Source of the DNA: Siphonodentalium dalli
Lineage: Eukaryota > Mollusca > Scaphopoda > Gadilida > Siphonodentaliidae
Length of the DNA: 64,000 bases
Assembly: GCA_032622095.1 (NCBI GenBank)
Contig: CP136061.1
Coordinates: 21,392,991 to 21,456,990, forward strand
Reading direction: 5' to 3'
Made by a program: the position numbers and the translations under genes. Shown in pieces: positions 291 to 61,368 of this stretch. How positions within the stretch are numbered: the first letter of the stretch is position 1; every line of letters begins with the position of its first letter. Under the pieces are notes generated by a model. That model did no database searches and was not told where the DNA came from. It worked only from the letters and a program-made list of their open reading frames with translations.

Positions 291-747
291 TTAACCCTTT
301 ACCCAACAGAACGGCCCTGTGCCAATGCATTCTCTTATATATGCGAGTCGACCATAGGTCGCCTCGCATATATAAGAGAATGCATTGGCTTAACACATAT
401 TAAAAATGATAAAATTGTCAAAGAATGTAGAAAAATATTATATTATTAAAAAAATGTAAGAAAAAATTATAAAATTGTTAATTGAAAAATGGTAAAAAGT
501 GTTAAAAAAAGATTTTTTTAGGCCAATGCATTCTCTTATATATGCGAGGCGACCTATGGTCGACTCGCATATATAAGAGAATGCATTGGCACAGGTCATA
601 ACTCAGTGTAACCATCACAATGTGGTCAATGAACCGGTTCCAATGATATCCATATTTGTATGGTGTTATTGAGACAGACCGAAGATATTTTAGGCTGTTG
701 AAGCTTTATTTGGCCGTTTTTGGCCGTTTTGTTGGGTAAAGGGTTAA
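291..747 (+). mobile_element. TTAA-A MITE
   Basis: TTAACCCTTTACCCAACA at the left and its reverse complement at the right. Two copies of the 26-bp-arm hairpin, in opposite orientation, lie about 150 bp apart. The right half holds a unique stretch with ACCGGTTCCAATGATATCC. The best copies are about 400 bp. Confidence 0.88.
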
Positions 748-950
748 ACTGCATGAATAATTTATTTTAAATTCAGTTTTAAATCAGTTTACATGACTTG
801 TGGCATTATCTTTTTATATTGTTTCAATTCCAATGATTTGTTTTCTTCTGACTTATTAAATTTAATATCATCCATTCAAGTTTGCTGGTTCACAATTAAG
901 ACTACACTATTTTCTGTTTATATAACTGCAGAATGGAATTCTTCATTTCT

Positions 951-1409
951 TTAACCCTTTCAGTGCCAGGGGCCGATCTCATCGGCCCTAATTTACAGTC
1001 TGTAAAATCGGCCCTAAAATTTTTTTTAAAATAGATTTTTTTTTTTTTGGGTCGAATTTATTTTTGGTATGCTTAAGCATGCTATAGCGAATTTAAAAAC
1101 AAACTGGATAAAACATTAGGGGCATGTTATAACTCAAAACTATCACCAAGTATTCATAGTAATAATTTTGATGCCAATGAAAAACGTAAGGTTCCCTGGC
1201 ACTAAACCTACAAAATAAGTCTGTTAAAGAATATAAGAAAAAATTATCAAAATTGTAAAAAATAATAACAAATGATGAAAATTTGTTAGGCCAATGCATT
1301 CTCTTATATATGCGAGGCGACCTATGGTCGACTTGTATATATAAGAAAATGCATTGGCACAGGGTATATGGGTTGATACAAAAATCGGACTTGGCACTCA
1401 AAGGGTTAA
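951..1409 (+). mobile_element. TTAA-B MITE, long form
   Basis: Ends TTAACCCTTTCAGTGCCA and GGCACTCAAAGGGTTAA. It contains one hairpin cassette at about 1290-1367 plus AT-rich spacer. The encoded-looking peptide is shared by every copy and has no frame conservation outside the repeats. Confidence 0.87.
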
Positions 1410-1429
1410 ATAATCCTATTGTAATATCT

Positions 1430-2590
1430 CTAAAACATATCAAGGCTAATTTTAGGCAGATATCTTCACTAGGGATATTCTGGTTCGATTTCATGTGAAT
1501 CCGTAAAAAAGCTCACATACATTCTCTTTGGTGTTCCTACAAATGTATCATTGTAGGAACAACTTATTATAATAGTTTAATAAATAGCAGGCTACTTGCT
1601 CAATTTATTAGCGGAACTACTCATTGGTCCAGTTAACAGATGATCAAATTTTTTTGAATAGAAAAATATGGATTAAATTTCTCTCTTCTCTTACTTAAGA
1701 GTGATCACCAGCGCTTCTGTGTAGGCAGATATCTACAATAATGTTATTCTTGTTTGGCGTCACATAAAGGTACATGTATATATTGTCATTGGAGTCCCTT
1801 TTAAATTGTGTCCATTGTAGCAATACTCATCATAATAGTTTACCAAACAGCAGGCTGTTTGCTAAACTTATTAGTTGAGCATTCCTACAAATGAATCAAT
1901 GGGAATCATGCAACGATTCATCTGTGAGTGTTCAGTTTCATTCAATTGAAGGGTTAAACTTCTACCTTCTCTCTACTTAGACGGATCACCCAGGGTTTCT
2001 ATGTTGGCAGATAGACTCGGGGGTTTCAATTAAATCCATACAAAGGATCGTGTGTATATATTATCCTATGGGTCCCTACAAACGTGTCTATTGTAGGAAT
2101 ATTTTTTATAATAGTTTATGAAACAGCAGGCTTCTTGCTAAAATTATTAGCTGAACATCCCCTACAAATGAATGAATGGGAATCAAGTAACTACTCATCA
2201 GTCCAGTTATCAAAGGATAAAATTTATATTAACCCTTTCAGTGCCAAGTCCGATTTTTGTATCAACCCATATTTCCTTGATCATTTTTCAAATTTATTGA
2301 TTATAATAATGTGATACATTGATGGAAAGAGCTCTAAGAGCTCTTTCCATCAAAGTATCACATTATTATAATCAATAAATTTGAAAAATGATCAAGGAAA
2401 TATGGGTTGATTCAAAATTCGGACTTGGCACTGAAAGGGTTAATATAAGGAGAAGGGTTAAATTTCTACCTTCTCTGTACATGAGAGGGATCATTCAGGG
2501 CTTCTGTGTTGGCAGATATGCCCGTTGGGTTTCACGTGAATCCATATAAAGGCTCGTGTATATATATTCTCCTTGGGGTCTCGAGGCCAA
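1430..2590 (+). repeat. Tandem ~280-bp repeat, about four units
   Basis: GGCAGATA-type marks at 1454, 1723, 2006 and 2511 show the period. The last interval is longer by the 211 bp of the TTAA-B insertion at 2229. Units share TTCTACCTTCTCT, GGATCAC, CTTCTGTGTTGGCAGATA and GTGAATCC. Divergence between units is considerable. Confidence 0.75.
2229..2443. mobile_element. TTAA-B MITE, short perfect-hairpin form
   Basis: The two arms of about 105 bp are nearly perfect inverted repeats meeting at GAGCTCTAAGAGCTC. Ends are the TTAA-B ends (TTAACCCTTTCAGTGCCA), but the core differs from the long form. Near-identical sister copy at 56996-57210. Confidence 0.92.
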
Positions 2591-2721
2591 TCAATACAGG
2601 AAGAGATATCTATCCTCTTAACATTGCGTGCATATGATGCCATCCTAGCTTATTGATTGTTCTCTTATTTTTCCATAATCCTAAGTTGGCTGCCTATCAA
2701 AGAAAATATTGCATGGGCACT

Positions 2722-3538: not shown

Positions 3539-3897
3539 GTGCCGGACAAAATCAGAGGCATCAATTAATAATTTTGTGTCTGTTTTAAATTATCATGAGT
3601 GCATTTATATGCTATGTGTAATGGGGACAATTCGGGTATCTAATAAAATATAAGTATTTGATAAAACTTGAAATTAAATGAAATTAATTTTCTATATATA
3701 TCTTTCTATGAAATGATATGACATTTAATTATAACAAGCCCCAGTTATTGGTCAACACCAACAAAATCAAATACTGAAAAATATAAAACTCCCCAAGATT
3801 TGTTTATATAACCACGTGGCGCGTACTTGAGATATATGCATTCGTTAAAACTCACAACTAAATTACCCAGCTAGAAATTTGACCTGTGCATGGTAGA

Positions 3898-4757: not shown

Positions 4758-5156
4758 TTAACCCTTTACCCAACAGAAGGGCCCTGTGCCAATGCATTCT
4801 CTTATATATGCGAGTCGACCATAGGTCGCCTCGCATATATAAGAGAATGCATTGGCTTAACACATTAAAAATTATAAAATTGTTAAAGAATGTAAGAAAA
4901 AATGGTAAAAAGTGTTAAAAAAAGATTTTGTTTAGGCCAATGCATTCTCTTATATATGCGAGGCGACCTATGGTCGACTCGCATATATAAGAGAATGCAT
5001 TGGCACAGGGCTAACTGTAACTATCACAATGTGGTCAAGGAGCCGGTTCCAATGATATCCATATTTGTATGGTTCTATTGAGACAGACCGAAGATATTTT
5101 AGGCTGTTGAAGCTTTATTTGGCCGGTTTTGGCCGGTTTGTTGGGTAAAGGGTTAA
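4758..5156 (+). mobile_element. TTAA-A MITE
   Basis: Full-length copy with both ACCCAACA ends and two hairpin cassettes. The right flank (TTAA then ACTGATGTGAAAC) matches the uninterrupted start of the dispersed repeat at 41879, so it landed in that repeat's TTAA. Confidence 0.9.
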
Positions 5157-6352: not shown

Positions 6353-7193
6353 CACGACTTGAAATAGTGCGTCTGTTATTTGCAGAATGAGGTCTCCAGA
6401 GGGTAATTTAGTGACACTACCCCATACAGTGGGCTAACATCACTAAATTCACCCTCTGGGAACCTCATTTTGCTTAGGCCTCATCTTCTGGGAAGCATCT
6501 ATAGCTCAAATTAACCCTTTACCCAACAGAAGGGCCCTGTGCCAATGCATTCTCTTATATATGCGAGTCGACCATAGGTCGCCTCGCATATATAAGAGAA
6601 TGCATTGGCTTAACACATTAAAAATTATAAAATTGTTAAAGAATGTAAGACAAAATGGTAAAAAGTGTTAAAAAAAGATTTTTTTTAGGCCAATGCATTC
6701 TCTTATATATGCGAGGCGACCTATGGTCGACTCGCATATATAAGAGAATGCATTGGCACAGGGTATAACTGTAACTATCACAATGTGGTCAAGGAGCCGG
6801 TTCCAATGATATCCATATTTGTATGGTTCTATTGAGACAGACCGAAGATATTTTAGGCTGTTGAAGCTTTATTTGGCCGGTTTTGGCCGTTTTGTTGGGT
6901 AAAGGGTTAACATGGTTTTCAGTTACTTTTTCCCTTCTGTTCATTTTTATTTTTCCCATAATTTTCAGAAGATAAAATGCTTAATTAATTGAGGTGACCA
7001 ATGGGTGAACATCAATTTCAACTGGGGAACTTCAATCTGATCCTTGGTCTCCCGTAGTAATTTAGGTCTCCTCAGAATGAGGTTCCCAGAGGGTGAATTT
7101 GGTGATGCTAGCCCACTATGCGGTATAGTATCACTAAATTCACCCTCTGAGGACCTCATTGTGCAAATGACAGACACACTATTTCAAGTCATG
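6353..7193. mobile_element. Long CAAGCCTTG-family element interrupted by a TTAA-A MITE
   Basis: Left end CACGACTTGAAATAG and right end CTATTTCAAGTCATG, with flanks CACTTGTT and CACTTATT (7 of 8). The piece at 6511-6910 is a complete TTAA-A MITE. The same region in the related copy at 12520-12600 is uninterrupted. Confidence 0.8.
6511..6910 (+). mobile_element. TTAA-A MITE nested in the element at 6353
   Basis: Complete, with two hairpin cassettes. Its flanks CTCAAATTAA and TTAACATGGTTTTCAG join to give the empty-site order seen, on the other strand, near 12570 and 33980, showing duplication of exactly TTAA. Confidence 0.92.
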
Positions 7194-7695
7194 CACTTAT
7201 TGTGCCAATGAAACATGACCAACCTGTGTATCTTATTACACATTTCTACTGAGTCTGCACACGATTCTTCTTGATTTCAAAGCATCGCAATTTTGTTCTA
7301 TGCATCGCATCGGGAATGTCTAATCACGATTTAACACCAGCAGAAGTTTGCATCCAAAGCTCATCAAATGCTATCTTACAACAATCAAGTATTCAGTTTC
7401 TTAACATTCATTTCCATAAAGTAGATAAATTTACCCTTCCTAATTGCAGGAATCAGGTTGAAGTTTCCATGCGAGCAGTGAGCAACTTGATTCCTGCAAC
7501 AGGCTGAATTAATTCATAGTGGCAACTATTAAAATTATGCGTTTGATGTAACATAAACATCACGATGTGCATCATGGAGTTATGCATCATTGTAGCCCTG
7601 AGTTCTATGTAGCTAGGTACCAAACTACCCAGAGCTCGAAATAAACACCTTTCCCAGAACGGTTCATGGGCAACAAGTAGATTCTTGTTCTACCT
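7194..7695. other. Stretch without recognised features
   Basis: A 78-codon open frame at 7271-7507 shows no recognised motif or exon signals. Nothing else seen. Confidence 0.5.
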
Positions 7696-8086
7696 GTGCC
7701 AATGCATTCTCTTATATATGCGAGTTGACCATAGGTCGCCTCGCATATATAAAGAGAATTATTTTTTTATAATTGTTCAAAAATGTAAGAAAAAATTTAA
7801 AAAATGATAAAAAAAATTGTTAAAGAATGTAAGAAATGATGATAAAAAATTGTTAAAGAATGTAAGAAAAAATGATAAAAATTTATAAAGAATGTAAGAA
7901 AAAAATGGTAAACAATGTAAGAAGAAATTTTTTTATAAAAATTGTTATAGAATGTAAAAAACAATTAAAAAAAATGATATAAACAAAATTGATAAAAATT
8001 GTTAAAGAATATAAGAAATAGATAAAAAATGATAAAAATATGGTCTTTAATGTTGCGCCAGCACAGCTCCCATCATCAAAGGGTTA
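7696..8086 (+). mobile_element. Degenerate TTAA-type MITE, AT-rich core expanded
   Basis: One hairpin cassette at 7697-7758 is followed by many imperfect repeats of GTTAAAGAATGTAAGAAAAA. The right end (CAGCTCCCATCATCAAAGGG, TTAA) is TTAA-C-like. The left terminus is missing. Confidence 0.6.
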
Positions 8087-9117
8087 ATAGTCTGCACGCT
8101 TCTGTTTGAAATGTAGAATAATATCGAAGTACTTATATCAGTTAGGGACATCTATTATTCCGAGTAAGATATTTCTAATTTGCTGGGAATTATCTTGAAT
8201 ATTGCCCAACCTAAATCCCAAATGGGAAGGAATTAATTGAGTGTTATTTAATAGCCAGTTATTGTGGATGAACTCAATCAAATCAGCTGATCAGTCCACT
8301 CCTCACTATAATACATGTAATATGCTCCCACATAATACAGGTATGCACAGGTAAAATTCTCAGGTGACAGGATGGAAATTATAAAACATTTCGAGTCTTG
8401 CAGCTACATGTACCCAATTTGTGAACCTAACTATAATAAGATCCAAATTATAAAGAGAAGAATAAATATTGGCCAGTTTTCAATTGACATATCTGCAGCA
8501 TAAATGAATAGAAATTGTTTTAAAAAAAAATTGATTGTTAATGACTTCAGAAAGGATTCTCAGGTGAAAACAAGTCATTGGAGCACTGTAAATTATGTAT
8601 GGAACATTGCTTGCCAAGTAAATTGTTTCTGCCAGATTTCTGTTCTCATGTCTCATGTCTCCTTTTATTTTGATAGTGCTTTCTAGCGACCCTGATGAGA
8701 AAGTTGGTATGTGAATTAGCACCTTTTCTTTGCATGTGGAGAGTAGGACCTGGAGTTAACCTTGTCAGGCTGTGTATTTACTTCACACTCTGTGAATCAC
8801 CTAACCTTGATTTATCTGAAGCACTAACTAGTACTGCACCTACTCTCATTGTTATAGGGATTCATATGTGTGCTTTACAGCTCCTCCGTTAACATTGCTT
8901 GATCCTTGCTTGTCTCCATTACATCCTTTATATTCCCTAAATGTTCTGTATTCGACTTTTCAGGTTGGGAGATTTAATTGAATATAGAGTATACATTTGG
9001 AAATATAAAATAATGACTTGAGTCAGATAGACAGTCAACAGTAGCTTTTGTCTTACGAAATGTTTTTTTTTTTTTTTTCTCCTATGAATTTTTCGTTAAT
9101 TTTATATTATAATTATA
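8087..9117. other. Stretch without recognised features
   Basis: Overlapping short open frames at 8480-8892 on both strands, without recognised similarity. A poly-T run at about 9063-9079. Confidence 0.5.
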
Positions 9118-10731: not shown

Positions 10732-10997
10732 TTAACCCTTCAATGATGGGAGCTGCATTAAAGATCCAATGCATTCTCTTATATATGCGAGTTCCATAGG
10801 GAACCTCACATATATAAAAGAATGCACTGGCTTACAAGGTCAATGTAAATATTAAATATTGTTAGGCCAATTTATTCTCTTATATATGCGAGGCTCCCTA
10901 AAGTAGGCTCCCTAGGGGAGACTCGCATATATAAGAGAATGCATTGGCACTGGGTTTTCGCAAAATATTTAGGAAGCTCCAGTCGTGGAAGGTTTAA
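10732..10997. mobile_element. TTAA-C MITE
   Basis: Ends TTAACCCTTCAATGATGGGA and AGCTCCAGTCGTGGAAGG. Two hairpins of the CTCCC/GGGAG-tip type. Part of one stem is duplicated (CTCCCTAAAGTAGG). Confidence 0.82.
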
Positions 10998-11043
10998 CAG
11001 CTATGCTTAACTAATTATATAAATCACTATATGCTAATACATG

Positions 11044-11651
11044 TACAGTAATGCTCTAATTAATCGACCTCTTAACCACAGCAGAATTATGGGTAACATT
11101 TCAGGATTTAGACGGAAATATGGCTTGTTGCCATTCATCGGGAAAGCTCTCGCTGAGAGCTTTCCGATGAATGGCAGCAAGCCATATTTCCGACTAAATC
11201 CTGAAAAGTTACCCATAATTCTGCTGTGGTTAACCCTTTACCCAACAAAACGGCCAAAACCGTCCAAATAAAGCTTCAACAGCCTAAAATATCTTCGGTC
11301 TGTCTCAATAGAACCATACAAATATGGATATCATTGGAACCGGCTCCTTGACCACATTGTGATAGTTATGCCCTGTGCCAATGCATTCTCTTATATATGC
11401 GAGTCGACCATAGGTCGCCTCGCATATATAAGAGAATGAATTGGCCTAAAAAAAATCTTTTTTAAACACTTTTTACCATTTTTTCTTACATTCTTTAACA
11501 ATTTTATAATTTTTAATGTGTTAAGCTAATGCATTCTCTTATATATGCGAGGCGACCTATGGTCGACTCGCATATATAAGAGAATGCATTGGCACAGGGC
11601 CGTTCTGTTGGGTAAAGGGTTAAGAGGTCGATTAATTAGAGCATTACTGTA
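11044..11651. mobile_element. TA-flanked hairpin MITE interrupted by a TTAA-A MITE
   Basis: The left arm from TACAGTAATGC is complete and contains GACCTCTTAACCACAGC. The right arm has the same site split as GCTGTGGTTAA...TTAAGAGGTC around 11230-11623. The unbroken arm is therefore the empty site inside the same element. Confidence 0.93.
11230..11623 (-). mobile_element. TTAA-A MITE nested in the hairpin MITE
   Basis: Complete copy in reverse orientation relative to 291. Both TTAA ends present, with two hairpins. Confidence 0.93.
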
Positions 11652-12700: not shown

Positions 12701-12801
12701 GTCCAGTAAATTACATCTGGACCGAGACTTTGGCAAGGTCCAGACCTAATTTACTGGACAAATTTGGTAAAATCCACTATAAACTGGGAACGAGTTGTAG
12801 A

Positions 12802-14132
12802 TCTGAAGCGACGGTTTAAAGATTACATATAGTGATGTAGGTTCCTGAACGTCTGAAGCGACGTTTAGAGATTACATTAGTGATGTAGGTTCCTAAACGT
12901 CTGAAGCGACGGTTTAAAGATTACATATAGTGATGTAGGTTCCGAAACGTCTGAAGCGACGGTTTAAAGATTACATATAGTGATGTAGGTTCCTGAACGT
13001 CTGAAATGAGTTTAGAGATTACATTAGTGACGTAGGTTCCTGAACGTCTGAAACGAGTTTAGAGATTACATTAGTGACGTAGGTTCCTGAACGTCTGAAG
13101 AGACATTTAGAGATTACATTAGTGATGTAGGTTCCTAAACGTCTGAAGCGACGGTTTAAAGATTACATATAGTGATGTAGGTTCCGAAACGTCTGAAGCG
13201 ACGGTTTAAAGATTACATATAGTGGTGTAGGTTCCTGAATGTCTGAAGTGTGTTTAGAGATTACATTAGTGACGTAGGTTCCTGAATGTCTGAAGTGACG
13301 TTTTAAAGATTACATATAGTGACGTAGATTCCTGAACATCTGAAGCGAGTTTAGAGATTACATTAGTGACGTATGTTCCTGACTGTTTGAAGTTACGGTT
13401 TAAAGATTACCGTACATATATTGACATAGGTTCTTGAACGTCGGAAGCAAGTTTAGACATTACATTAGTGGTGTAGTTTCCTGAACATCTGAAGCGACTG
13501 TTTAAAGATTACATATAGTGATGTAGGTTCCTGAACGTCTGAAACGAGTTTAGAGATTACATTAGTGATGTAGGTTCCTAAATGTCTGAAGCGACGGTTT
13601 AAAGATTACATATAGTGGTGTATGTTCCTGAATGTCTGAAGTGTGTTTAGAGATTACATTAGTGACGTAGGTTCCTGAACATCTGAAGCGACGGTTTAAA
13701 GATTACATATAGTGATGTAGGTTCCTGAACGTCTGAAGCAACGGTTTAAAGATTACATTAGTGACGTAGGTTCCTGAATGTCTGAAGCGAGTTTAGAGAT
13801 TACATTAGTGACGAAGGTTCCTGAACGTCTCAAGCGACAGTTTAAAGTTTACATATAGTGACATAGTTTCCTGAACGTCTAAAGCGAGTTTAGAGATTAC
13901 ATATAGTGACATAGTTTCCTGAACGTCTAAAGCGAGTTTAGAGATTACATTAGTGACATAGGTTCCTGAACATCTGAAGAGACGGTTTAAAGATTACATG
14001 TAGTGACGTAGGTTCCTGAACATCTTAACCGACGATTTAGAGATTACATATAGTGATGTAGTTTCCTGAACGTCTGAAGTGAGTTTAGAGATTACATATA
14101 GTGATGTAGGTTCCTGAACATCTCAAGCGAGT
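12802..14132 (+). repeat. Minisatellite 1, 47- and 50-bp units, about 27 copies
   Basis: Two unit types intermix. Type A (50 bp) has GCGACGGTTTAAAGATTACA then TATAGTGATGTAGGTTCCTG. Type B (47 bp) has GCGAGTTTAGAGATTACATT then AGTGACGTAGGTTCCTG. Reverse-complemented, the unit matches the unit of the array at 25049. Single unit-like copies occur at 28218-28260 and 50699-50747. Confidence 0.95.
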
Positions 14133-14237: not shown

Positions 14238-14496
14238 TTAACACTTTCTGTATTGGGAGCTGCACTGATGCAGCATTAAATATCATGTGCCATCTCTTAT
14301 ATATATGAGTCTCCCAAAGGGAGCCTCGCAAATATAAGATAATGCACTGGCTTACGAGATCAATGTAATTATTGTTAGGCCATTGTATTCTCTTATATAT
14401 GCGAGGCACCCTATGGGAGACTCGCATATATAAGAGAATACTTTGGCACAGGGTTTTCATAAAATTTCATGAAGATCCAGTCAAGGAAGTGTTAAT
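14238..14496. mobile_element. TTAA-C MITE, diverged
   Basis: Ends TTAACACTTTCTGTATTGGG and GAAGATCCAGTCAAGGAAGT, then GTTAA. Two hairpins of the CTCCC/GGGAG type with base losses. Confidence 0.75.
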
Positions 14497-15064
14497 AATA
14501 TATCGCTGTCGGCTGGAAATAGACAACAAGCACTTCCTAATGGCTAATTACTCTTCCCATGCTCCCTGATAATTTGTATGTCACTGTTAATGTGAGCACC
14601 AGAGGAGCACTATTCTATCTAAAAAGTATCATTGTTGCTATGGTATCCTACTGATTCCCATCTCTGCCACCGGATTAATATACACTCAACAGCACTTCAG
14701 TTTCCTCTTTTGACACAATTTGTTCCTCTTGGAATAGAAATTATTTCAATGAACTTTGCGGTATTTTTCTTGAAAACAATAAATTGTTATTCATACTTAG
14801 ATAATATAAGCTAGTGGTAAATAACATTGGCTACTTCGATGTCAGATCATTCCAGGAACGGAAATACTTTGCTTATGACATTTTGCTGGAGTGTACATAG
14901 GCGCCCCCAAAGCTATATAACATCGCCGTTTATTGATGGATTCTGACAATTTTATGTATGTGAGTTTATTGTCACATTCGACAGCTGTATACCGAAAATC
15001 AGGCCTGCCCCGATTTTCAAACCAGAGTTATGGCACTTGTTTTATTTATTACATCCGTTGTTCA
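14497..15064. other. Stretch without recognised features
   Basis: Short open frames only. GCCTGCCCCGATTTTCAA at about 15003 may be the edge of a TCCG-type repeat. Confidence 0.45.
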
Positions 15065-15326: not shown

Positions 15327-15557
15327 TTAACCCTTTGAGTGCCAGGGGCCGATCTTATCGGCCCTAAACCTACAAAATAAGTCTGTTAAAGAATATAAGA
15401 ATAAATTATTAAAATTGTATAAAAAAAATAATTGTTAGGCCAATGCATTCTCTTATATATGCGAGGCGACCTATGGTCGACTCGCATATATAAGAGAATG
15501 CATTGGCACAGGGTACATGGGTTGATACAAAAATCGACATGGCACTCAAAGGGTTAA
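15327..15557 (+). mobile_element. TTAA-B MITE, internally deleted long form
   Basis: Ends TTAACCCTTTGAGTGCCA and GGCACTCAAAGGGTTAA; one hairpin cassette. It lacks about 200 bp present at 951. Confidence 0.85.
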
Positions 15558-17206: not shown

Positions 17207-17580
17207 TTAACCCTTTACCCAACAGAAGGGCCCTGTGCCAATGCATTCTCTTATATATGCGAGTCGACCATAGGTCTCCTCGCATATATAAGAGAATGCA
17301 TTGGCTTAACACATTAAAAATTATAAAATTGTTAATGGTAAAAAGTGTTAAAAAAAGATTTTTTTTAGGCCAATGCATTCTCTTATATATGCGAGGCGAC
17401 CTATGGTCGACTCACATATATAAGAGAATGCATTGGCACAGGGCATAACTGTAACCATCACAATGTGGTCAATGAGCCGGTTCCAATGATATCCATATTT
17501 GTATGGTTCTATTGAGACAGACCGAAGATATTTTAGGCTGTTGAAGCTTTATTTGGCCGGTTTGTTGGGTAAAGGGTTAA
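17207..17580 (+). mobile_element. TTAA-A MITE in PMCA intron 1
   Basis: Both ends intact, two hairpin cassettes, slightly short spacer. It lies 189 bp after the exon w1 donor. Confidence 0.9.
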
Positions 17581-20581: not shown

Positions 20582-20978
20582 TTAACCCTTTACCCAACAG
20601 AAGGGCCCTGTGCCAATGCATTCTCTTATATATGCGAGTCGACCATAGGTCGCCTCGCATATATAAGAGAATGCATTGGCTTAACACATTAAAAATTATA
20701 AAATTGTTAAAGAATGTAAGAAAAAATGGTAAAAAGTGTTAATTTTTTTTTTTTTAGGCCAATGCTTTCTCTTATATATGCGAGGCGACATATGGTCGAC
20801 TCGCATATATAAGAGAATGCATTGGCACAGGGCTAACTGTAACTATCACAATGTGGTCAAGGAGCCGGTTCCAATGATATCCATATTTGTATGGTTCTAT
20901 TGAGACAGACCGAAGATATTTTAGGCTGTTGAAGCTTTATTTGGCCGGTTTTGGCCGGTTTGTTGGGTAAAGGGTTAA
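20582..20978 (+). mobile_element. TTAA-A MITE
   Basis: Complete copy, two hairpin cassettes. One stem carries a substitution (AATGCTTTCTC) not mirrored on the other arm. Confidence 0.9.
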
Positions 20979-21079: not shown

Positions 21080-21510
21080 TTAACCCTTTCAGTGCCAGGT
21101 CCGATTTTTGTATCAACCCATATACCCTGTGCCAATGCATTCTCTTATATATGCGAGTCGACCGTAGGTCGCCTCGCATATATAAGAGAATGCATTGGCC
21201 TAACAATTTTTCATCATTTGTTATTATTTTTTACAATTTTTTACAATTTTAATAATTTTTTCTTATATTCTTTAACAGACTTATTTTGTAGGTTTAGTGC
21301 CAGGGAATATTACGTTTTTCATGGGCATCAAAATTATTACTATGAATACTTGGTGATAGTTTTTTTAAGTTATAACATGCCCCTAATGTTTTGTCCAGTT
21401 TGTTTTTAAATTCGCTATAGCATGCTTAAGCATACCACCTAAAAAAGGGCTGATTTTACAGACCGTAAATTAGGGCCGATGAGATAGGCCCCTGGCACTG
21501 AAAGGGTTAA
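21080..21510 (-). mobile_element. TTAA-B MITE, long form, reverse
   Basis: Ends TTAACCCTTTCAGTGCCA and TGGCACTGAAAGGGTTAA. One hairpin cassette with a GTCGACCGTAGGTCG tip variant. Confidence 0.9.
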
Positions 21511-22751: not shown

Positions 22752-22942
22752 TTAACCCATTCTTTACTAAATGGATTCTTCCACTCAGTTATAAATGCAT
22801 ACATTAGATGTATGGGTAGAAGTAATCCTATTTATTGGAGGGAGATGTTCAGAGAAGTACAACTAATTACTCATCAATGAGTATTTAGAATAGAATGATA
22901 TTTAATGCTGCACCAACACAGCTCCCACCATGAAAGGGTTAA
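22752..22942. mobile_element. Chimeric TTAA MITE (D-type left, C-type right)
   Basis: The left end TTAACCCATTCTTTACTAAA resembles the TTAA-D copies at 45046 and 49277. The right end (CAGCTCCCACCATGAAAGGG, TTAA) is the TTAA-C end. Confidence 0.6.
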
Positions 22943-36005: not shown

Positions 36006-36085
36006 GTAGGTATAATCTGATAAATGTATAGAGGATTCCTGCAGGTTTTGGTTCTATGCCATTGCTATTTCCCCACTATTTAATC

Positions 36086-37314
36086 TTTTCATGACTGGAT
36101 CTTCCTGAAATTTTGCAGAAACCATGAGCCTCGCATATATACTAGTAAGAGAATGCATTGGCCTAACACAAGGCCAGCCACCCAGCGGCCTCATTCCCCT
36201 TCCCAACCTTGACTTAATATGGGTCACAAAATAGCCACAGGCCTAGGTCAGTCCGCTTTTTACACAGGACGAGCGATCACCGACACTGATGATTAACAGA
36301 TTGCAAGGAATCCCACACTTGGTGCCTGAATATAACATGATCAGTAGCGTGGACCATGTGCACAATTGTCTACACAATCCTGGGTAACGCTTTGTCGGGC
36401 AAATGTTTAGTAGTAATCAGCATTTCGCATTTTAATTTACTGTAGATTTCTGTCTATAAATCCCAATTTTCTGACCCACTATTTCTCCTCAAAAAGCGGT
36501 AAGTCATATGGGGCGGGCGCTGAATTCTGAGCTACAACCGTGAACACAGGTGAGTTTTGGCAGTCCCTGCGACGAACAGTGCAGACACCTTTTTCATCAA
36601 AACAAGGTCTGGATCAATGAAATGTTTAATTAAAAATAAAACAAAATATTAATAGTTATTATCAGTGTATTTATTCCCTATCCAATGATTATTATTCCAT
36701 TATACGAATCCAGCATGAGGTCATCTCCGCCTGAGGAACGGCTTTTGATTTTACAACAAATTGTTTTAATCGGTACTGTGAACAAAATACAAAGAGAGCA
36801 GGCATGCAGAACGTTAGCAAGTGACATGAGCTCTGCTCATGGCGTAAAACAAACACTTGTTACTGCCAGACAGTATGACAATGTGTCTTTTGCCAACTGC
36901 GGTAGTCTTTGATGTCGGCTTTTAATAATGCTACTGTTATAAAAGTCGTTGTATTCCATTGTATGCTGTTGTGCTGACGTGCTGTTGTGCTTATATGCTT
37001 TTAGTTCATTAACTTGAGATCTAAGAAAGATGGTCTGTTTTAATTTGGTTTCTATACGAAGCTTCAATTTTCATGCTTGTTGTCTCAAGTGCAAGGAAAT
37101 GGCTACTTTTCACTGATAAACATCCAAATTTTCTCCCGACAGGGTGGCTGGTATGTGCTTCCCAAATACAGCCACATTCCCTAACCCCTAGCGGAAACCC
37201 TGCCTAACAATATCTACCTTGACTCCCTATGAGAGACTCGAATATATAAGAGAATGCATTGGCACAGTGTTTTCACAAAATTACAAGAGGCTCCAGTCAT
37301 GGAAGAGTTGACAT
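36086..37314. mobile_element. TTAA-C-type MITE split by a 1.03-kb insertion
   Basis: TCTTTTCATGACTGGATCTT and the first half-hairpin lie before 36169. TATCTACCTTGACTCCCTAT through CTCCAGTCATGGAAGAG lie after 37201. The order matches the copies at 47278 and 61033. Confidence 0.75.
36169..37201. mobile_element. Insertion flanked by GCCTAACA direct repeats
   Basis: GCCTAACA at 36161-36168 and 37202-37209. The right end is CTAGCGGAAACCCT, hAT-like if one G is counted inside. GGCCAGCCACCC at 36172 is mirrored by GGGTGGCTGG at 37142. The empty site GGCCTAACAATATTTACC exists at 61127. An open frame of 75 codons at 36685 is not recognised. Confidence 0.75.
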
Positions 37315-37643: not shown

Positions 37644-38009
37644 TTAACCCTTTACCCAACAGAATGGCCCTGTGCCAATGCATTCTCTTATATATGCGAG
37701 TCGACCATAGGTCGCCTCGCATATATAAGAGAATGCATTGGCTTAACACATTAAAAATTATAAAATTGTTAAAGAATGTAAGAAATTTATTTTTTAGGCC
37801 AATGCATTCTCTTATATATGCGAGGCGACCTATGGTCGACTCGCATATATAAGAGAATGCATTGGCACAGGGCATAACTGTAACCATCACAATGTGGTCA
37901 AGGAGCCGGTACCAATGATATCCATATTTGTATGGTTCTATTGAGACAGACCGAAGATATTTTAGGCTGTTGAAACTTTATTTGGCCGGTTTGTTGGGTA
38001 AAGGCTTAA
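37644..38009 (+). mobile_element. TTAA-A MITE
   Basis: Both TTAA ends (right end AAGGCTTAA with one change) and two hairpin cassettes with a short spacer. Confidence 0.9.
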
Positions 38010-38249: not shown

Positions 38250-38381
38250 AAAATAAATATTGTTAGGCCAATGCATTCTCTTATACATGTGAGGCTCCCT
38301 GTGGGAGACACGGATATATAAGAGAATGCATTTGCACAGGGTTTTCCCAAATTTCTGGAATCTCCTGTCGTGGAAGGGTTA
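38250..38381. mobile_element. Partial TTAA-C MITE next to exon w8
   Basis: One CTCCC/GGGAG-type hairpin at 38268-38338 and the right end TCCTGTCGTGGAAGGGTTA. It stops 45 bp before the exon w8 acceptor. Confidence 0.7.
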
Positions 38382-38426
38382 TTCATTTATCTGTGTTTTA
38401 TATTTTATATTTATTGACTTTTGTAG

Positions 38427-38782: not shown

Positions 38783-39255
38783 TTAACCCTTTCAGTGTCA
38801 GGGGCCGATCTCATCGGCCCTAATTTACAGTCTAAAATCGGCCCTAAAAAAAATCTTTTTTTATTTGTTTTTTGTTTTTGTTTTAGATTTGTTTGGGTTG
38901 AATTTTTTTTGGGTATGCTTAAGCATGCTATAGCGAATTTAAAAACAAACTGGATAAAACCTTAGGGGCATGTTATAACTCAAAACTATAACCAAGTATT
39001 CATAGTAATAATTTTGATGCCCATGAAAAACGTAAGATTCCCTGGTACTAAACCTACAAAATAAGTCTGTTAAAGAATATAAGAACAAATTATTAAAATT
39101 GTAAAAAATAATAACAAATGATGAAAAATTGTTAGGCCAATGCATTCTCTTATATATGCGAGGCGACCTATGGTCGACTCGCATATATAAGAGAATACAT
39201 TGGCACAGGGTATATGGGTTGATACAAAAATCGGACCTGGCACTGAAAGGGTTAA
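38783..39255 (+). mobile_element. TTAA-B MITE, long form
   Basis: Ends TTAACCCTTTCAGTGTCA and TGGCACTGAAAGGGTTAA, one hairpin cassette; longest copy in the window. Confidence 0.9.
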
Positions 39256-39470: not shown

Positions 39471-39870
39471 TTAACCCTTTACCCAACAAACCGGCCAAAA
39501 CCGGCCAAATAAAGCTTCAACAGCCTAAATTATCTTGGGTCTGTCTCAATAAAACCATACAAATATGGATATCATTGGAACCGGCTCATTGACCACATTG
39601 TGATGGTTACAGTTATGCCCTGTGCCAATGCATTCTCTTATATATGCGAGTCGACCATAGGTCGCCTCGCATATATAAGAGAATGCATTGGCCTAAAAAA
39701 AATCTTTTTTTAACACTTTTTAATATTTTTTCTTACATTCTTTAACAATTTTATAATTTTTAATGTGTTAAGCCAATGCATTCTCTTATATATGCGAGGC
39801 GACCTATGGTCGACTCGCATATATAAGAGAATGCATTGGCACAGGGCCGTTCTGTTGGGTAAAGGGTTAA
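39471..39870 (-). mobile_element. TTAA-A MITE, reverse
   Basis: Complete copy with two hairpin cassettes. Confidence 0.92.
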
Positions 39871-42608: not shown

Positions 42609-42618
42609 TAGACATATA

Positions 42619-42823
42619 GGAACCCTTTCTCGACTGGTACCGTGCCTTTGCAGCATTAAAGATCATGTGCCAGTGCATTCTCTTATATATGCGAGTCTCC
42701 CATAGGCCAATGTATTCTCTTCTATATGCGAGGCTCCCTATGGGAGACTCGCATATATAAGATAATGCATTGGCACAGTGTTTTCACAAAATTTCAGGAA
42801 GCTCCAGTTATGGATAGGGTTAA
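42619..42823. mobile_element. TTAA-C MITE
   Basis: Left TTAA lost (AGGAACCCTTTC), right end AGCTCCAGTTATGGATAGGG then TTAA. One and a half hairpins. Starts 32 bp after the exon w10 donor. Confidence 0.75.
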
Positions 42824-43808: not shown

Positions 43809-44209
43809 TTAACCCTTTACCCAACAGAAGGGCCCTGTGCCAATGCATTCTCTTATATATGCGAGTCGACCATAGGTCGCCTCGCATATATAAGAGAATG
43901 CATTGGCTTAACACATTAAAAATTATAAAATTGTTAAAGAATGTAAGAAAAAATGGTAAAAAGTGTTAAAAAATGTGTTTTTTTTAGGCCAATGCATTCT
44001 CTTATATATGCGAGGCGACCTATGGTCGACTCGCATATATAAGAGAATGCATTGGCACAGGGCATAACTGTAACTATCACAATGTGGTCAAGGAGCCGGT
44101 TCCAATGATATCCATATTTGTATGGTTCTATCGAGACAGACCGAAGATATTTTAGGCTGTCGAAGCTTTATTTGGCCCGTTTTGGCCGGTTTGTTGGGTA
44201 AAGGGTTAA
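43809..44209 (+). mobile_element. TTAA-A MITE
   Basis: Complete, two hairpin cassettes; 90 bp after the exon w11 donor. Confidence 0.92.
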
Positions 44210-47277: not shown

Positions 47278-47551
47278 TTAACACTCTTTTGTGACGAGAG
47301 CTGCGCTTGTGCAGCATTAAAGATCATGTGCCAGTGCATTCTCTTATATATGCTAGTCTCCTATAAGGAGCCTCACATATTTAAGAGAATGCTCTGGCTT
47401 ACAAGGTCAAGGTAAATATTGTAAGGCCAATACATACAATACATTCTCTTATATATATGATGCTCCCTTAGTGAGACTCGCATATATAAGAGAATGCATT
47501 GGCACAAGGTTTTCGCAAAATTTCAGGAAGCTCCAGATATTGAAGGGTTAA
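47278..47551. mobile_element. TTAA-C MITE
   Basis: Starts TTAACACTCTTTTGTGACGA, ends AGCTCCAGATATTGAAGGG then TTAA. Two hairpins, the second with an inserted ACATACAAT. Begins 35 bp after the exon w13 donor. Confidence 0.8.
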
Positions 47552-48007: not shown

Positions 48008-48416
48008 TTAACTCTTTCAGTGCCAGGGGCCGATCTCATTGGCCCTAATTTACAGTCTGTAGAGTGGCCCTAAAAAAAAATTAAAATTAAAAAAAAAATT
48101 TAAAAACAAACTGGATAAAACCTTAGGGGCATGTTATAAATCAAAACTATCAGCAAGTATTCATAGTAATAATTTTGATGCCCATGAAAAACGTAAGATT
48201 CCCTGGCACTAAACCTACAAAATAAGTCTGTTAAAGAATATAAGAAAAAATTATTAAAATTGTAAAAAATAATAACAAATGATGAAAAATTGTTAGGCCA
48301 ATGCATTCTCTTATATATGCGAGGCGACCTATGGTCGACTCGCATATATAAGAGAATGCATTGGCACAGGGTTTATGGGTTGATACAAAAATCAGACCTG
48401 GCACTGAAAGGGTTAA
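48008..48416 (+). mobile_element. TTAA-B MITE, long form
   Basis: Ends TTAACTCTTTCAGTGCCA and TGGCACTGAAAGGGTTAA; one hairpin cassette. It ends 157 bp before exon w14. Confidence 0.9.
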
Positions 48417-49944: not shown

Positions 49945-50747
49945 GGCCAGGAACGTACTTCATGAATCAAGTCTCTAATCCAACGCGGATTTGATTTTAA
50001 ATTTATTTAAAACATATATAACCATTTGTCTGACAGGATAAATTAGTACATTAGCTGTGGAAATTCACAATGCATATTCAAAAATCAGTAATCGTTAAAA
50101 ACTCATAAATATAACTGAAATTTACCATGAAAATAGGTATCGATTATACCCCGAATTGAACATGAGACACACATTTCAACATCAAACACACCTCAACCAT
50201 TTACTAGATGTTCGTAAAATACACTTAATTCCATTCACTCGCAAGTTAACCCTTTACCCAACAAACCGGCCAAAACCGGCCAAATAAAGCTTCAACAGCC
50301 TAAAATATCTTCGGTCTGTCTCAATAGAACCATACAAATATGGATATCATTGGAACCGTCTCCTTGACCACACTGTGATAGTTACAGTTATGCCCTGTGC
50401 CAATGCATTCTCTTATATATGCGAGTCGACCATAGGTCGCCTCGCATATATAAGAGAATGCATTGGCCTAAAAAAAATCTTTTTTTACCATTTTTTCTTA
50501 CATTCTTTAACAATTTTATAATTTTTAATGTGTTAAGCCAATGCATTCTCTTATATATGCGAGGCGACCTATGGTCGACTCGCATATATAAGAGAATGCA
50601 TTGGCACAGGGCCGTTCTATTGGGTAAAGGGTTAAATAACTCTTGCAACAAATATCCAGCTCATCCACTACTGAGTTCCAGATAGCAACTATATCCGAAG
50701 GTCTGAAGCGACGTTTTAGAGATTACATTAGTGATAGGTTCCTGGCC
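49945..50747. mobile_element. Element whose two ends match the units of minisatellites 2 and 1
   Basis: The left end GGCCAGGAACGTACTTCATG then AATCAAGTCTCTAATCC is one minisatellite-2-like unit. The right end TTTTAGAGATTACATTAGTG then ATAGGTTCCTGGCC is one minisatellite-1-like unit. The two are inverted relative to each other. A TTAA-A MITE sits inside at 50246. Confidence 0.8.
50246..50635 (-). mobile_element. TTAA-A MITE nested in the element at 49945
   Basis: Complete, two hairpin cassettes. Flanks CACTCGCAAGTTAA and TTAAATAACTCTTGC correspond to CACTCGTAAGTACAATAACT at 28145, an uninterrupted relative. Confidence 0.92.
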
Positions 50748-54108: not shown

Positions 54109-55263
54109 CGGGCTGTAACGATTCATTGTAGTTCTTGGTAGTTTACCGTTCAATGCATAACATTTGGAATGATGTTTATGCAGTCTTGATTCGTCTTGCC
54201 ATGTTTTATCTAGAGCCCAGAAAACCTGGAATTCCCTTGAATTTGACAAATGACCAGAAGTCAAGATCTGGAAAGTGCTTAAATTACGACCTGGGGGGGG
54301 AGGGGGGGGATTGGGGTCTTGATTAGCCTTGAATTTCGATATTTGCACGGCTTGCTGAAGTTGTAATAACTTCAATTTCACTTACTATATCTTATTGAAG
54401 GGTCTTAAAAAAAACAAGCATTGGGTTTGAATAACCTTGAGTTTATTATCTGAGGGGCTTTATCTTTGGCGATATTTGCACAACTTGCTGAACTTGTAAT
54501 TATTACGATCTAATTGAATGGTCTTGAAAAAAACATTAAAATTGTCAAGCACTTGACCTGAATAACCTTGAATTTTTTAACTGATGCGAGGTCCTTAAAA
54601 AACCTTAAAACTTGTTGAAAAATGGCCTTTTATAGCTTTGAATTTTATTAATTATAAGCTGTGAGAATCCTGTTTAACCCTTTACCCAACAGAACGGCCC
54701 TGTGCCAATGCATTCTCTTATATATGCGAGTCGACCATAGGTCGCCTCGCATATATAAGAGAATGCATTGGCTTAACACATATTAAAAATGATCAAATTG
54801 TCAAAGAATGCAGAAAATATTATAAGAAAAAATGGTAAAAAGTGTTAAAAAAAAGATTTTTTTTAGGCCAATGCATTCTATTTATATATGCGAGGCGACC
54901 TATGGTCGACTCGCATATATAAGAGAATGCATTGGCACAGGGCATAACTGTAACCATCACAATGGGGTCAATGAACCGGTTCCAATGATATCCATATTTG
55001 TATGGTGTTATTGAGACAGACCCCAAGATATTTTAGGCTGTTGCAGCTTTATTTGGGCGTTTTTGGCCGTTTTGTTGGGTAAAGGGTTAATATGCCGATA
55101 CAAACGCTGATGAGAAGAAACTAATAATATGAGAGCAGTACATGGCATTTACAACCTTCAGTTTTCTGAAATTGCATTGCGTTGCACACCCAATCATATC
55201 TCTCACTCGTAAGAATAAACTCATGATTCACGCCGATTTGTGATAGTGAATCGTTGCAGCCCG
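54109..55263. mobile_element. Composite repeat bounded by CGGGCTGTAACGATTC ends
   Basis: CGGGCTGTAACGATTCATTG left, TGAATCGTTGCAGCCCG right. Inside are a CTTGAA-rich repeat (about 54200-54660) related to 61813-62183 and a TTAA-A MITE. No exact target duplication. Confidence 0.55.
54674..55090 (+). mobile_element. TTAA-A MITE
   Basis: Both ends intact, two hairpin cassettes. Closest in spacer to the copy at 291 (ACACATATTAAAAATGATC-type). Confidence 0.9.
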
Positions 55264-56995: not shown

Positions 56996-57210
56996 TTAAC
57001 CCTTTCAGTGCCAAGTCTGATTTTTGTATCAACCCATATTTCCTTGATCATTTTTCAAATTTATTGATTATAATAATGTGATACATTGATGGAAAGAGCT
57101 CTTGGAGCTCTTTCCATCAATGTATCACATTATTATAATCAATAAATTTGAAAAATGATCAAGGAAATATGGGTTGATACAAAAATCAGACTTGGCACTG
57201 AAAGGGTTAA
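56996..57210. mobile_element. TTAA-B MITE, short perfect-hairpin form
   Basis: Near-identical to 2229-2443, both 215 bp, with centre GAGCTCTTGGAGCTC. Confidence 0.93.
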
Positions 57211-58197: not shown

Positions 58198-58450
58198 CCA
58201 AGCTACACATTTTCGTTATATGGCATATGTAGTCTTTATATATTGTATAAGGATATTTATTAGACTAAACATATTTTTCACATCCTCACTGGCCCATATT
58301 TTTCCTCTATCTGGCAGCTTGGACGGTTAACTTTAAGACATATTTTCTTCCTTCCGATTAAAGCATTTCTTGCCTTTTATGATATATTTTAGCGAATTCA
58401 TATTAATATAAGAACAAAATAAGCACTGACAATAAATTGAATACATGACA
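58198..58450 (+). other. Probable 3' UTR of the STAL isoform (minimum extent)
   Basis: The first AATAAA after the stop is at 58431-58436. Later candidates are at 59481, 59563 and 60757. The region to about 60800 is low in recognisable repeats, so a longer UTR is possible. Confidence 0.4.
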
Positions 58451-58511
58451 TTTGAAGGCCACACATAATGTTCATTTCTTCTATTTATATTAAATATATT
58501 ATGTACTTTTA

Positions 58512-58715
58512 AAGCCACATGGCGGATCGCTTTTGAATATTTTCCCAGTATCGAAATAGGTCGATAAATACTTGAATATATACCTTTCTACAAGCATTAT
58601 ATGTACCAGAAAGATACATTGAAATCATAAAACATACAACTTCGAACACCTTTTTTTTGTTGTCAGTTATAAGTTATTATAATAATCATATGAACATGAT
58701 GTGTGGCTTTAAAGC
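58512..58715. repeat. Dispersed repeat with AAAGCCACATGG ends
   Basis: TTAAAGCCACATGGCGG left, GTGTGGCTTTAAAG right. A related copy at about 55803-55965 shares CCGAAATAGG, GCATTATATGT and CATTGAAGTCATAAAA. Lies after the STAL-exon stop. Confidence 0.65.
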
Positions 58716-60808
58716 GGGAAATATCTATAATAATTTCACTCAGATGATCATTTTATGAAAAAAATTAATAATCCTCAAGAAAAATTACTATAATCTTCAT
58801 GAATACTCTTGTGTGCCAAATAGAAGTGCAGGTCGGAATATAAGTACAGGGTGGAAACTTCCGACAAAGCTAATAATTGTGCAGGGTTGAATAGAAGTAC
58901 AGGGTGGAAGCATGTTATCAATTCTCACCAAAAAAACGCAATAATTTTTAAAATGCCCAGAAGTAAAACAACGTAATGACAACAATTGCACATGTTCTTA
59001 TAAGAATACTAAGATGTTTGTCGCGCGACCACCACTTTGAGAACCGATATTCTGGTATTTTATTTGCACTGGCATCCGTTATGGACTTCTGCTATCGAGC
59101 CATCAATTTTCAAAAAATCTTTCAGACCCGAATAAGCATGCAGGGTGGATTTTGTTCATAAAATTAATAAATGTACAGGTATGTTTATTTGGCACACAGG
59201 AGTAATTGTTTTCCCTGATTTTGTTGTACCCACATCCTGGCATTGTCTTCTCCAATGTTCCCCTCATTCTCCCCATATAGTTTTTTGATAATTTGCAGCA
59301 TATCTGGCTAGTTCCCCCAATGCTGATTTTTTTTCCCATTCACAAGCTGTTGGAAAACGGAGAGATTCCGGCCACTGTTTGATGACTGTTTTATTGTTTC
59401 CCACAAATCATTAAAATCTGACATATCGACTTTTCTTGTCGTTAAAGTGATTTGAAACAATAACGTTGTGATTCACAGTAAATAAACTTGCTCAACGCAG
59501 GTATTTCTATAAATTTTTTATAAAAATTGACAGAACGCAATGCTATTCTTTCACATAAATTAAATAAAGAGACTCTCGTTGACGAAGTAATTCTCGTTTG
59601 TTTATCAGTGACTTGGTTGGGACGAATGAACGGCTGTCTGTTTACTTTTTTACAGTCTTAATTAGCATGGGCTTAGTTAGAATTTATTTGCATAGATCTT
59701 TATTTGGGAATAAAATAGCTCTGTTTCCATAGAAACTAATAATAATTTTATTATTGATGCTTATGAGATAGTAATTTTTTTTTTAGTAGTCCAATGTAAC
59801 TTGATAAGTTATTTTCCATAGCACTCAGTGTAAGTTAGGATTAGCAAGTCCATGAATATCTCTCTATTCTCATGAGACTAGAGAACAATACAAGAAATGT
59901 AGCTATGTCAGATTTTGATATTTATATGGACAGATTTATGTTTTATTCATGTGTGTTGATACCATTAATAGCAGAAGTTGATTTCGTGAAGGAAAACATG
60001 TGTTCTGCAGTTTTTGGTAAGGAACATGAGGCAGTTCGTGGATAATAAAGGGACATATTTTCAAAACTGGAAATTATGTCTAAAAGTCAAAGTTGTCCTA
60101 TTTACAGATTAAAAAAATAGTAATGACCATACAATCACATTTCTTTAATGTCAAAAATTTGTCGGGTAATTTAAAAAATAAGATGCCGCTTAGTTATGAT
60201 GGTTGAAAAGTTTCATCCATTTTATTAAATACATTTTTTTTTTTTTTTTATTATTTAAATTTTTTTTCTGGTTTTCATATACCATACATTCACATAGCAT
60301 AAAACTCTGGTTGGACCAAACTTTGTATATACCTGTAAATACTTTGTATATTCACTGCAAACTGAGATCATTTAAAGCTCACTGCCACTTGTGATGTAAA
60401 TGCACCTTAAAGTAGGGTTAAAAAATTTATTGCAAAAATATATGCCATGAATTTGAAAAAACTGGTTTATGACAGATGATTAATCTTATGTACCTTGCAA
60501 TCAGATTCTATACTCGTACAGTTAGTAACCTACAGAGTTAATCAGATATTATGCAGCATATACATAATTGGATTTAATAATCAATTAACTTTTTGTTTGG
60601 TTATATCAAATGTTAAGTTAAAAAGATGGATGCACCTGTTTTAACTATGTCTGTACATATTATAAGGAGAAAAATGTTTTTAAATCAATTATCTCTAAAT
60701 TATTTCCTGTTAAAACCGACATATAATTCAGTTATGAACTTTGATGAACTCGGCTAAATAAATGTGCCCCGCAATTTAATTGAAAATCAACTTGTCCATA
60801 GTGGGATA
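58716..60808. other. Repeat-poor stretch after the gene
   Basis: CAGGGTGGA-type motif at 58847, 58897 and 59142, and a weak match to the GTGATGTGAAAC repeat at 59450-59640. Could be long 3' UTR or intergenic. No open frame supported. Confidence 0.45.
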
Positions 60809-61025
60809 TTCAGTAATGCTCTAAGTAATCGACTTCTTAACCACAGCAGAATTATGGGTAACTTTTCAGGATTTAGTCGGAAATATGGCTTGTTGCCATT
60901 CATCGGAAAGCTCTCCCCAAGAGCTTTCCGATGAATGGCAACAAGCCATATTTCCGACTAAATCCTGAAAAGTTACCCATAATTCTGCTGTGGTTAAGAA
61001 GTTGATTATTTAGAGCATTACTGTA
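60809..61025. mobile_element. TA-type hairpin MITE
   Basis: TTCAGTAATGCTCTAAGTAA left and GAGCATTACTGTA right. Arms are nearly perfect around GAAAGCTCTCCCCAAGAGC. Left TA is changed to TT. Confidence 0.88.
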
Positions 61026-61032
61026 AACACTG

Positions 61033-61368
61033 TTAACCCTTCGATGACTGGAGCTTCCTAAAATTTTATAAAATCCTGTGCCAATGCATTCTCTTATATA
61101 TGCGAGTCATATATAAGAGAACATATTGGCCTAACAATATTTACCTTATCCTTGTAAGCCAGTGCATTCTCTTATATATGCGAGTCATATATAAGAGAAC
61201 ACATTGGCCTAACAATATTTACCTTATCCTTGTAAGCCAGTGCATTCTCTTATATATGCGAGTCATATATAAGAGAACACATTGGCCTAACAATATTGAC
61301 CTTATCCTTGTAAGCCAGTGCATTCTCTTATAAGTATGCGAGGCTCCCTGTGGAGCCTCAAGGTTTAA
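61033..61368. mobile_element. TTAA-C MITE with an internally amplified 78-bp unit
   Basis: The left end is TTAACCCTTCGATGACTGGA. Units with CAGTGCATTCTCTTATATAT, GCGAGTCATATATAAGAG and CCTTATCCTTGTAAGC repeat at 61161, 61239 and 61317. Here the hairpin tip is reduced to a bare GCGAGTC. The last TTAA is shared with the next element. Confidence 0.85.

What the first reader, a model, noticed from the sequence alone, without database searches (positions are those of the whole stretch)
291..61368. One hairpin cassette shared by MITE families with different ends, with compensatory tip changes
The stem CCAATGCATTCTCTTATATA plus TGCGAG occurs, with its mirror, dozens of times in TTAA-A (two inverted copies each), TTAA-B long form (one) and TTAA-C (one or two). 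The outer stem is almost invariant. The inner stem is CGACC-TAT-GGTCG in A and B but CTCCC-TAT-GGGAG in C, paired changes on both sides, with the same adjacent G/A mismatch kept. Such covariation points to the folded form being maintained, by selection on DNA or RNA structure or by palindrome correction during transposition. I know of no described element with this pattern, but I cannot search.
Basis: partly seen in the sequence, partly recalled or inferred. Interest (0 to 1): 0.7.

Follow-up and report, generated by a model that had tools for sequence, protein, structure and literature searches.

The report
Palindrome shared by different small transposons
Several families of small non-coding jumping elements in an animal-like gene carry the same 67-base palindrome just inside different ends; the pattern is real, has a published parallel in corals, and the paired tip difference reflects very few old events rather than repeated proof of a selected fold.

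Summary
The 26-nt arm has 73 matches in the window (at most 3 mismatches; none expected). I aligned 37 hairpins: 22 in family A (11 copies), 5 in B-long, 9 in C, 1 in a mixed element. The tip is CGACC/GGTCG in A and B and CTCCC/GGGAG in C; the neighbouring mismatch is kept in 37 of 37. Covariation is weak evidence: the tip difference is two adjacent pairs fixed between families and inherited. Private changes are 12 one-sided and 0 paired in A/B (8 indel artefacts set aside); in C 42 one-sided (35 breaking) and 3 paired, one doubtful, 0.73 expected. Polarity relative to the element end is constant in the 36 hairpins where it can be judged, with shared flanks: one homologous end module. Outer ends are mostly unrelated between families, and two mixed elements occur. 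In A the hairpins carry no shared variants, other parts do; B is uninformative and C does not repeat this. Best reading: piggyBac-type TTAA MITEs with a shared subterminal palindrome, possibly a transposase-binding signal, resembling coral CMITEs. Host species not identified.

The parts
291..747 (+). Family A copy 1, hairpins 322-388 and 523-589
4758..5156 (+). Family A copy 2, hairpins 4789-4855 and 4937-5003
6511..6910 (+). Family A copy 3, hairpins 6542-6608 and 6690-6756
11230..11623 (-). Family A copy 4, hairpins 11378-11444 and 11526-11592
17207..17580 (+). Family A copy 5, hairpins 17238-17304 and 17370-17436
20582..20978 (+). Family A copy 6, hairpins 20613-20679 and 20759-20825
37644..38009 (+). 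Family A copy 7, hairpins 37675-37741 and 37799-37865
39471..39870 (-). Family A copy 8, hairpins 39625-39691 and 39773-39839
43809..44209 (+). Family A copy 9, hairpins 43840-43906 and 43989-44055
50246..50635 (-). Family A copy 10, hairpins 50400-50466 and 50538-50604
54674..55090 (+). Family A copy 11, hairpins 54705-54771 and 54868-54935
951..1409 (+). Family B-long copy 1, hairpin 1291-1357
15327..15557 (+). Family B-long copy 2 (internally deleted), hairpin 15440-15506
21080..21510 (-). Family B-long copy 3, hairpin 21132-21198
38783..39255 (+). Family B-long copy 4, hairpin 39137-39203
48008..48416 (+). Family B-long copy 5, hairpin 48298-48364
85..251 (+). Family C, single hairpin 136-202 with the outer motif on both sides
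10732..10994 (+). Family C, hairpins 10766-10830 and 10867-10947 (tip insertion); ends approximate
14238..14498 (+). Family C, hairpins 14284-14350 and 14380-14446; ends approximate
38256..38382 (+). Family C right end only, hairpin 38268-38334
42623..42823 (+). Family C, half hairpin (arm 42670-42695) fused to hairpin 42707-42773; left end decayed
47282..47551 (+). Family C, hairpins 47331-47397 and 47436-47502; left end decayed
7693..8087 (+). Mixed element: hairpin 7699-7766 with A/B-type tip, A/B-type AT-rich interior, C-left-type end at 8087; no left end found
37197..37313 (+). Family C remnant, one arm at 37237-37262
36084..36175 (-). Family C right-end remnant, hairpin largely deleted
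61033..61368 (-). Family C right end followed by a tandem array (period 78) of tip-deleted hairpins 61081-61129, 61159-61207, 61237-61285 and a partial one

Best explanation
These are non-autonomous TTAA (piggyBac-type) MITEs. Shown: families A, B-long and C share one homologous end module (outer CCCTGTG, 67-nt palindrome, inner CCTAA- or CTTA-like flank) in constant polarity, under outer ends mostly unrelated beyond TTAACCCTTT; other elements in the window join ends of different families. Inferred: families arose when ends were exchanged around the module, and the palindrome is a cis-acting signal that source copies tend to keep. By analogy with piggyBac and piggyBat it may be bound by dimers of the transposase's C-terminal zinc-binding domain. 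After insertion each copy decays with no detectable repair of pairing. The tip difference between A/B and C is one old two-pair block: a change in one arm, then a matching change in the other by template switching or by selection for a symmetric binding site.
For: TTAACCCTTT 40 times against 0.33 expected. TTAA at both ends in 16 of 16 A and B-long copies. Outer T / inner C mismatch in 37 of 37, 36 of them informative on polarity. Consensus hairpins of A-left, A-right and B identical over 67 nt, while A and B interiors match at 60 of 74 ungapped positions. Outer segments (TTAACCCTTT and CCCTGTG removed): 7 of 8 between-family comparisons do not exceed shuffles. Mixed ends: 22752-22942 is 39/43 like a D end and 27/31 like a C-left end; the end at 8087 is 22/27 like C-left (first ten bases removed). 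Family A: variants shared by two or more copies 0 in 134 hairpin columns, 16 in 266 others (p 0.0019), or 9 in 185 outer columns (p 0.012). Precedents: PMC7351741 and PMC11707139 (passages), PMC2872659.
Against: Singletons in A do not differ significantly (7/1474 against 29/2845, p 0.076; against 17/2007 outer, p 0.22). B has 0 shared variants in the hairpin but only 1 in 52 and 1 in 303 columns elsewhere, so it says nothing; in C-right the hairpin has 2 shared variants in 67 columns against 3 in 49 outside. A columns are linked within subfamilies, so p is optimistic. B-right against C-left outer is borderline in opposite orientation (8 of 300). No intact transposase: longest stop-to-stop ORF 144 aa; Pfam 0 of 10 ORFs scanned of 275, so fragments are not excluded. 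The palindrome is longer than piggyBac's 19-bp repeat. B-long's left end and the two B-short copies lack it yet have TTAACCCTTT ends. Recent exchange of the block would give the same identity without function.
Confidence: 0.6

Rival explanations
1. Hitch-hiking: the block has no function. It was passed between elements by recent recombination or gap repair, and its low variation reflects recency.
For: Singleton rates in A not significantly different from outer segments (7/1474 against 17/2007, p 0.22). End exchange is evident. In C the hairpin is only somewhat less diverged than the outer end (right 24/335 against 28/242; left 22/259 against 22/186) and has shared variants of its own.
Against: 0 of 134 hairpin columns with shared variants in A against 16 of 266; A-left, A-right and B consensus identical over 67 nt while the adjoining A and B interiors differ.
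Confidence: 0.25
2. The folded hairpin itself (cruciform DNA or RNA stem) is selected, or corrected by palindrome-guided template switching.
For: Paired tip difference. On 20 distinct rows: cells changed on both sides 19 against 7.5 (0 of 500 shuffles), covariation score 0.119 against 0.070 (0 of 500), pairs with a both-side change 6 against 3.5 (15 of 500). Private paired changes in C 3 against 0.73 expected, P 0.032. Template switching can make paired changes without selection (PMC8794818, passages).
Against: 14 of the 19 cells are the one inherited tip difference; further pair types are not in excess (107 of 500 shuffles). One of the 3 private pairs lies beside a 2-nt deletion and may be an alignment effect; with 2, P is 0.165. 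35 of 45 changed pairs in C break pairing; A/B have no paired change. The mismatch is kept in 37 of 37. Rfam: 0 matches at gathering score.
Confidence: 0.15
3. The hairpin, or the hairpin-spacer-hairpin unit, is itself a mobile element that inserted into several MITEs.
For: A sharp common boundary at CCCTGTG in five outer contexts.
Against: Constant polarity relative to the element end; no duplicated target flanks seen by eye in the flanks; a covariance search (E up to 1) found no further solo hairpin.
Confidence: 0.05

Closest known systems
CMITE families of Acropora corals (Wang et al. 2010, PMC2872659; abstract, passages, Results part 1 of 2 and Discussion seen)
   Same: TTAA flanks, CCCTTT-like ends, several families with different TIRs but a shared block more conserved than the TIRs, one copy whose block type does not fit its family, tandem arrays.
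   Different: CMITEs are about 100 bp with one 75-base internal block; here elements are about 170-470 bp and the block is subterminal, palindromic and often present twice. Whether the CMITE block is palindromic or homologous could not be read (sequence is in a figure).
piggyBac and piggyBat transposon ends (PMC7351741, PMC11707139; passages seen)
   Same: Subterminal palindromes bound by dimers of the transposase's C-terminal domain; TTAA targeting for piggyBac; in piggyBac the palindromes lie at different distances from the two tips.
   Different: Palindromes of 14-19 bp; here a 67-nt hairpin with 31 pairs. Sequences were not compared, and no transposase is known here.
Template-switch-maintained hairpins (PMC8794818; passages seen)
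   Same: Paired changes in hairpin arms can arise by mutation alone.
   Different: Here few paired changes and no inverted loop with its mismatch reversed.

Membership tests
piggyBac/TTAA MITEs | TTAA at both ends | tested here: met
   16 of 16 A and B-long copies; C ends decayed, several imperfect. Empty sites not examined.
piggyBac/TTAA MITEs | Terminal CC[C/T]T motif and inverted repeats | tested here: met
   CCCTTT ends; both A consensus ends begin TTAACCCTTTACCCAACA.
piggyBac/TTAA MITEs | Short and non-coding | tested here: met
   A and B-long copies 231-473 bp; longest stop-to-stop ORF in the window 144 aa.
piggyBac/TTAA MITEs | Moved by a piggyBac-type transposase | not testable with these tools
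   No host genome held; no Pfam match in the 10 ORFs scanned.
CMITE | Block more conserved between families than the TIRs | tested here: met
   Hairpin 67/67 between A and B consensus; 7 of 8 between-family outer comparisons at shuffle level.
CMITE | About 100 bp long with a 75-base internal block | tested here: not met
   Elements about 170-470 bp.
CMITE | Sequence homology to the CMITE block | not testable with these tools
   Block sequence is in a figure; six window strings occur in 0 papers.
Known structured RNA families (Rfam) | Match at gathering score | tested here: not met
   0 matches in the window.

The most novel reading that the evidence does not exclude
The palindrome is an end-independent mobility signal: a portable module that lets MITEs with unrelated terminal repeats use one transposition machinery, so that new families arise by swapping ends around it.
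Probability: 0.2. Interest if true: 0.6.

Novelty: new variant of a known kind. Interest (0 to 1): 0.35.

Why it matters
MITE families are usually recognised by shared ends and variable interiors; here, as in coral CMITEs, a non-terminal block is the shared part. If it is a transposase-binding signal, it would explain how non-autonomous elements diversify their ends and stay mobile, and would give a testable answer to the question that the CMITE authors left open.

Tried and rejected
Searched for the arm outside the window: 0 exact matches in viral contigs and genome contigs, collections of viruses and prokaryotes in which an animal MITE is not expected. Rfam gave nothing. Paper searches: 0 papers; 49 papers hold TTAACCCTTT, 25 listed; led to CMITE; 0; only four papers were opened, the rest seen as listings. 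Rejected or disfavoured: separately mobile hairpin, palindrome flipping, RNA-family membership. Small-RNA products could not be looked at.

Handling that affects counts. In one search, 8 of the 20 one-sided A/B changes belong to one indel-shifted arm (X7699, columns 69-82) and are alignment artefacts; I count 12 (8 breaking, 4 G-T). The C counts are per copy, so variants shared by several C copies count more than once; its Monte Carlo starts from perfect-stem C hairpins. Orientation: the flank-scoring script set 136, 10766 and 14284 to the minus strand; I used plus for 10766 and 14284 because they are the left hairpins of two-hairpin elements, and plus for 136 by hand. With minus for 136, which has the outer motif on both sides, its mismatch would read the other way, so it does not count for polarity.
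Full report
What is there. The window lies in a gene for a plasma-membrane calcium ATPase: six of seven frames tested match TIGR01517 best and one has no match; one of them matches animal PMCA structures best. The host species was not identified and no genome is held. Spread along the gene are MITE-like elements with TTAACCCTTT ends (40 occurrences, 0.33 expected).

The hairpin. The 26-nt arm has 73 matches with up to 3 mismatches, none expected. Thirty-seven hairpins were aligned: 22 in family A (11 copies), 5 in B-long, 9 in C and 1 in a mixed element at about 7.7-8.1 kb. A covariance model built from them finds these 37 again (by construction), three tip-deleted ones at 61 kb and one weak remnant at 37.2 kb. 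The A form folds as one 31-pair stem with a T/C mismatch and an ATA loop, z -14.2; of 12 folded, the weakest (14284) has z -3.7.

One homologous module. Oriented from the outer side, all 37 hairpins have T in the outer arm and C in the inner arm at the mismatch. One of them (136) has the outer motif on both sides and says nothing about polarity; two C-left ones (10766, 14284) were oriented by their position in the element, against the flank score. The outer flank is exactly CCCTGTG in 28 of 37, with near variants in most others, and the inner flank is CCTAA- or CTTA-like in A, B and most C copies. The hairpins are therefore homologous parts of element ends, not an inverting or freely inserting cassette.

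Different ends. With TTAACCCTTT and CCCTGTG removed, 7 of 8 comparisons of outer segments between families do not exceed shuffles; B-right against C-left is borderline in opposite orientation (8 of 300). Within families A-left and A-right (4 of 300) and C-left and C-right (0 of 300) are related. The AT-rich interiors of A, B and the mixed element are related (0, 0 and 1 of 300 shuffles reach the score); a relation to the C interior is not shown (102, 46 and 17 of 300). End exchange is directly visible: 22752-22942 has one end like family D (39/43) and the other like C-left (27/31), and the end at 8087 is C-left-like (22/27) in an element whose other side has an A/B-type hairpin. B-long's right end equals the B-short end over 33 of 33 nt after the first ten, then runs into the hairpin module.

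Covariation. On 20 distinct rows, cells changed on both sides exceed shuffles (19 against 7.5, 0 of 500), as does the covariation score (0.119 against 0.070, 0 of 500); pairs with a both-side change are 6 against 3.5 (15 of 500) and further pair types are not in excess (107 of 500). Fourteen of the 19 cells are one inherited difference, the tip of family C. Fixed paired differences are two adjacent tip pairs between A/B and C, and one outer pair in part of C-left. Private changes: A/B have 20 one-sided and no paired change; 8 of the 20 come from one indel-shifted arm, leaving 12. In the nine C hairpins 42 pairs changed on one side (35 break, 7 give G-T) and 3 on both sides; 0.73 are expected by chance, P 0.032, or 0.165 if the pair beside a 2-nt deletion is left out. 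In the tip alone, over all families, 5 changes break, 2 give G-T and 2 are paired. Pairing is thus not visibly maintained in resident copies; at source level there are too few events to tell.

Constraint. In family A, hairpins carry no variant shared by two or more copies in 134 columns, against 16 in 266 other columns (p 0.0019) or 9 in 185 outer columns (p 0.012). Singletons differ less: 7 of 1474 cells against 29 of 2845 (p 0.076), or 17 of 2007 for outer segments alone (p 0.22). This fits similar decay after insertion and a hairpin kept unchanged in the source lineage, but columns are linked within subfamilies, so the p-values are optimistic. B-long is uninformative: 0 shared variants in 67 hairpin columns, 1 in 52 and 1 in 303 elsewhere. 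In C-right the hairpin has 2 shared variants in 67 columns against 3 in 49 outside. In C the hairpin is somewhat less diverged than the outer ends (24/335 against 28/242 on the right, 22/259 against 22/186 on the left). The consensus hairpins of A-left, A-right and B are identical over 67 nt, whereas A and B interiors match at 60 of 74 ungapped positions.

Likely mechanism. Shown: homology, polarity, different ends, mixed elements, low shared variation in A. Inferred: the palindrome is a cis signal for transposition. piggyBac's CRD dimer binds a palindromic 19-bp internal repeat and kinks it (PMC7351741, passages); piggyBat has imperfect subterminal palindromes bound by a structurally different CRD (PMC11707139, passages). 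A symmetric binding site would also favour paired changes without any folding. Against it, B-short and B-long's left end lack the block, and no transposase is in view.

What is known. Coral CMITEs (PMC2872659) have TTAA flanks, CCCTTT-like ends, families with different TIRs but a 75-base block more conserved than the TIRs, one copy with a block of another family's type, and tandem arrays; the authors suggested that the CC[C/T]T motif plus the block may suffice for mobility by several piggyBac-like transposases. The present case repeats this pattern with a palindromic, subterminal and often doubled block, so I call it a new variant of a known kind. Whether the two blocks are homologous cannot be told from the text.

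Verdict. Real and well observed; the covariation argument is weak; the shared-block pattern is the more interesting part and has a precedent.

Noticed in passing
61033-61368: Tandem array, period 78, of tip-deleted hairpins whose arms combine C-left and C-right features, next to another TTAACCCTTT element (61365-61692); resembles CMITE arrays.
   Followed up: partly
22752-22942: MITE with a D-family end on one side and a C-left-family end on the other, without the hairpin: direct sign of end exchange.
   Followed up: yes
2229-2443 and 56996-57210: B-short elements: both ends alike and, in the first, nearly the whole element a palindrome by eye; they share the B right end but lack the hairpin.
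   Followed up: partly
85-135, 8020-8087, 14238-14284, 22880-22942: C-left ends carry a second small variable palindrome (GCTGCACTGATGCAGC-like), seen by eye.
   Followed up: no
25033 to about 27950: Long minisatellite with a 37-bp unit and occasional spacing of 41-42.
   Followed up: no
12796-14130: Tandem repeat of about 47-50 bp units, just before a family C element.
   Followed up: no
4442-62743: Another dispersed repeat with internal dyads around AATTTAGTGATGCTAC and CACCCTCTGGGGACCTCATTCTGC (22 copies in family D7; D4 and D10 overlap it).
   Followed up: no
322-388 (example of the A/B tip): The A/B to C tip difference equals an in-place inversion of a 2-bp duplex (GA/TC to TC/GA); may be chance.
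   Followed up: no
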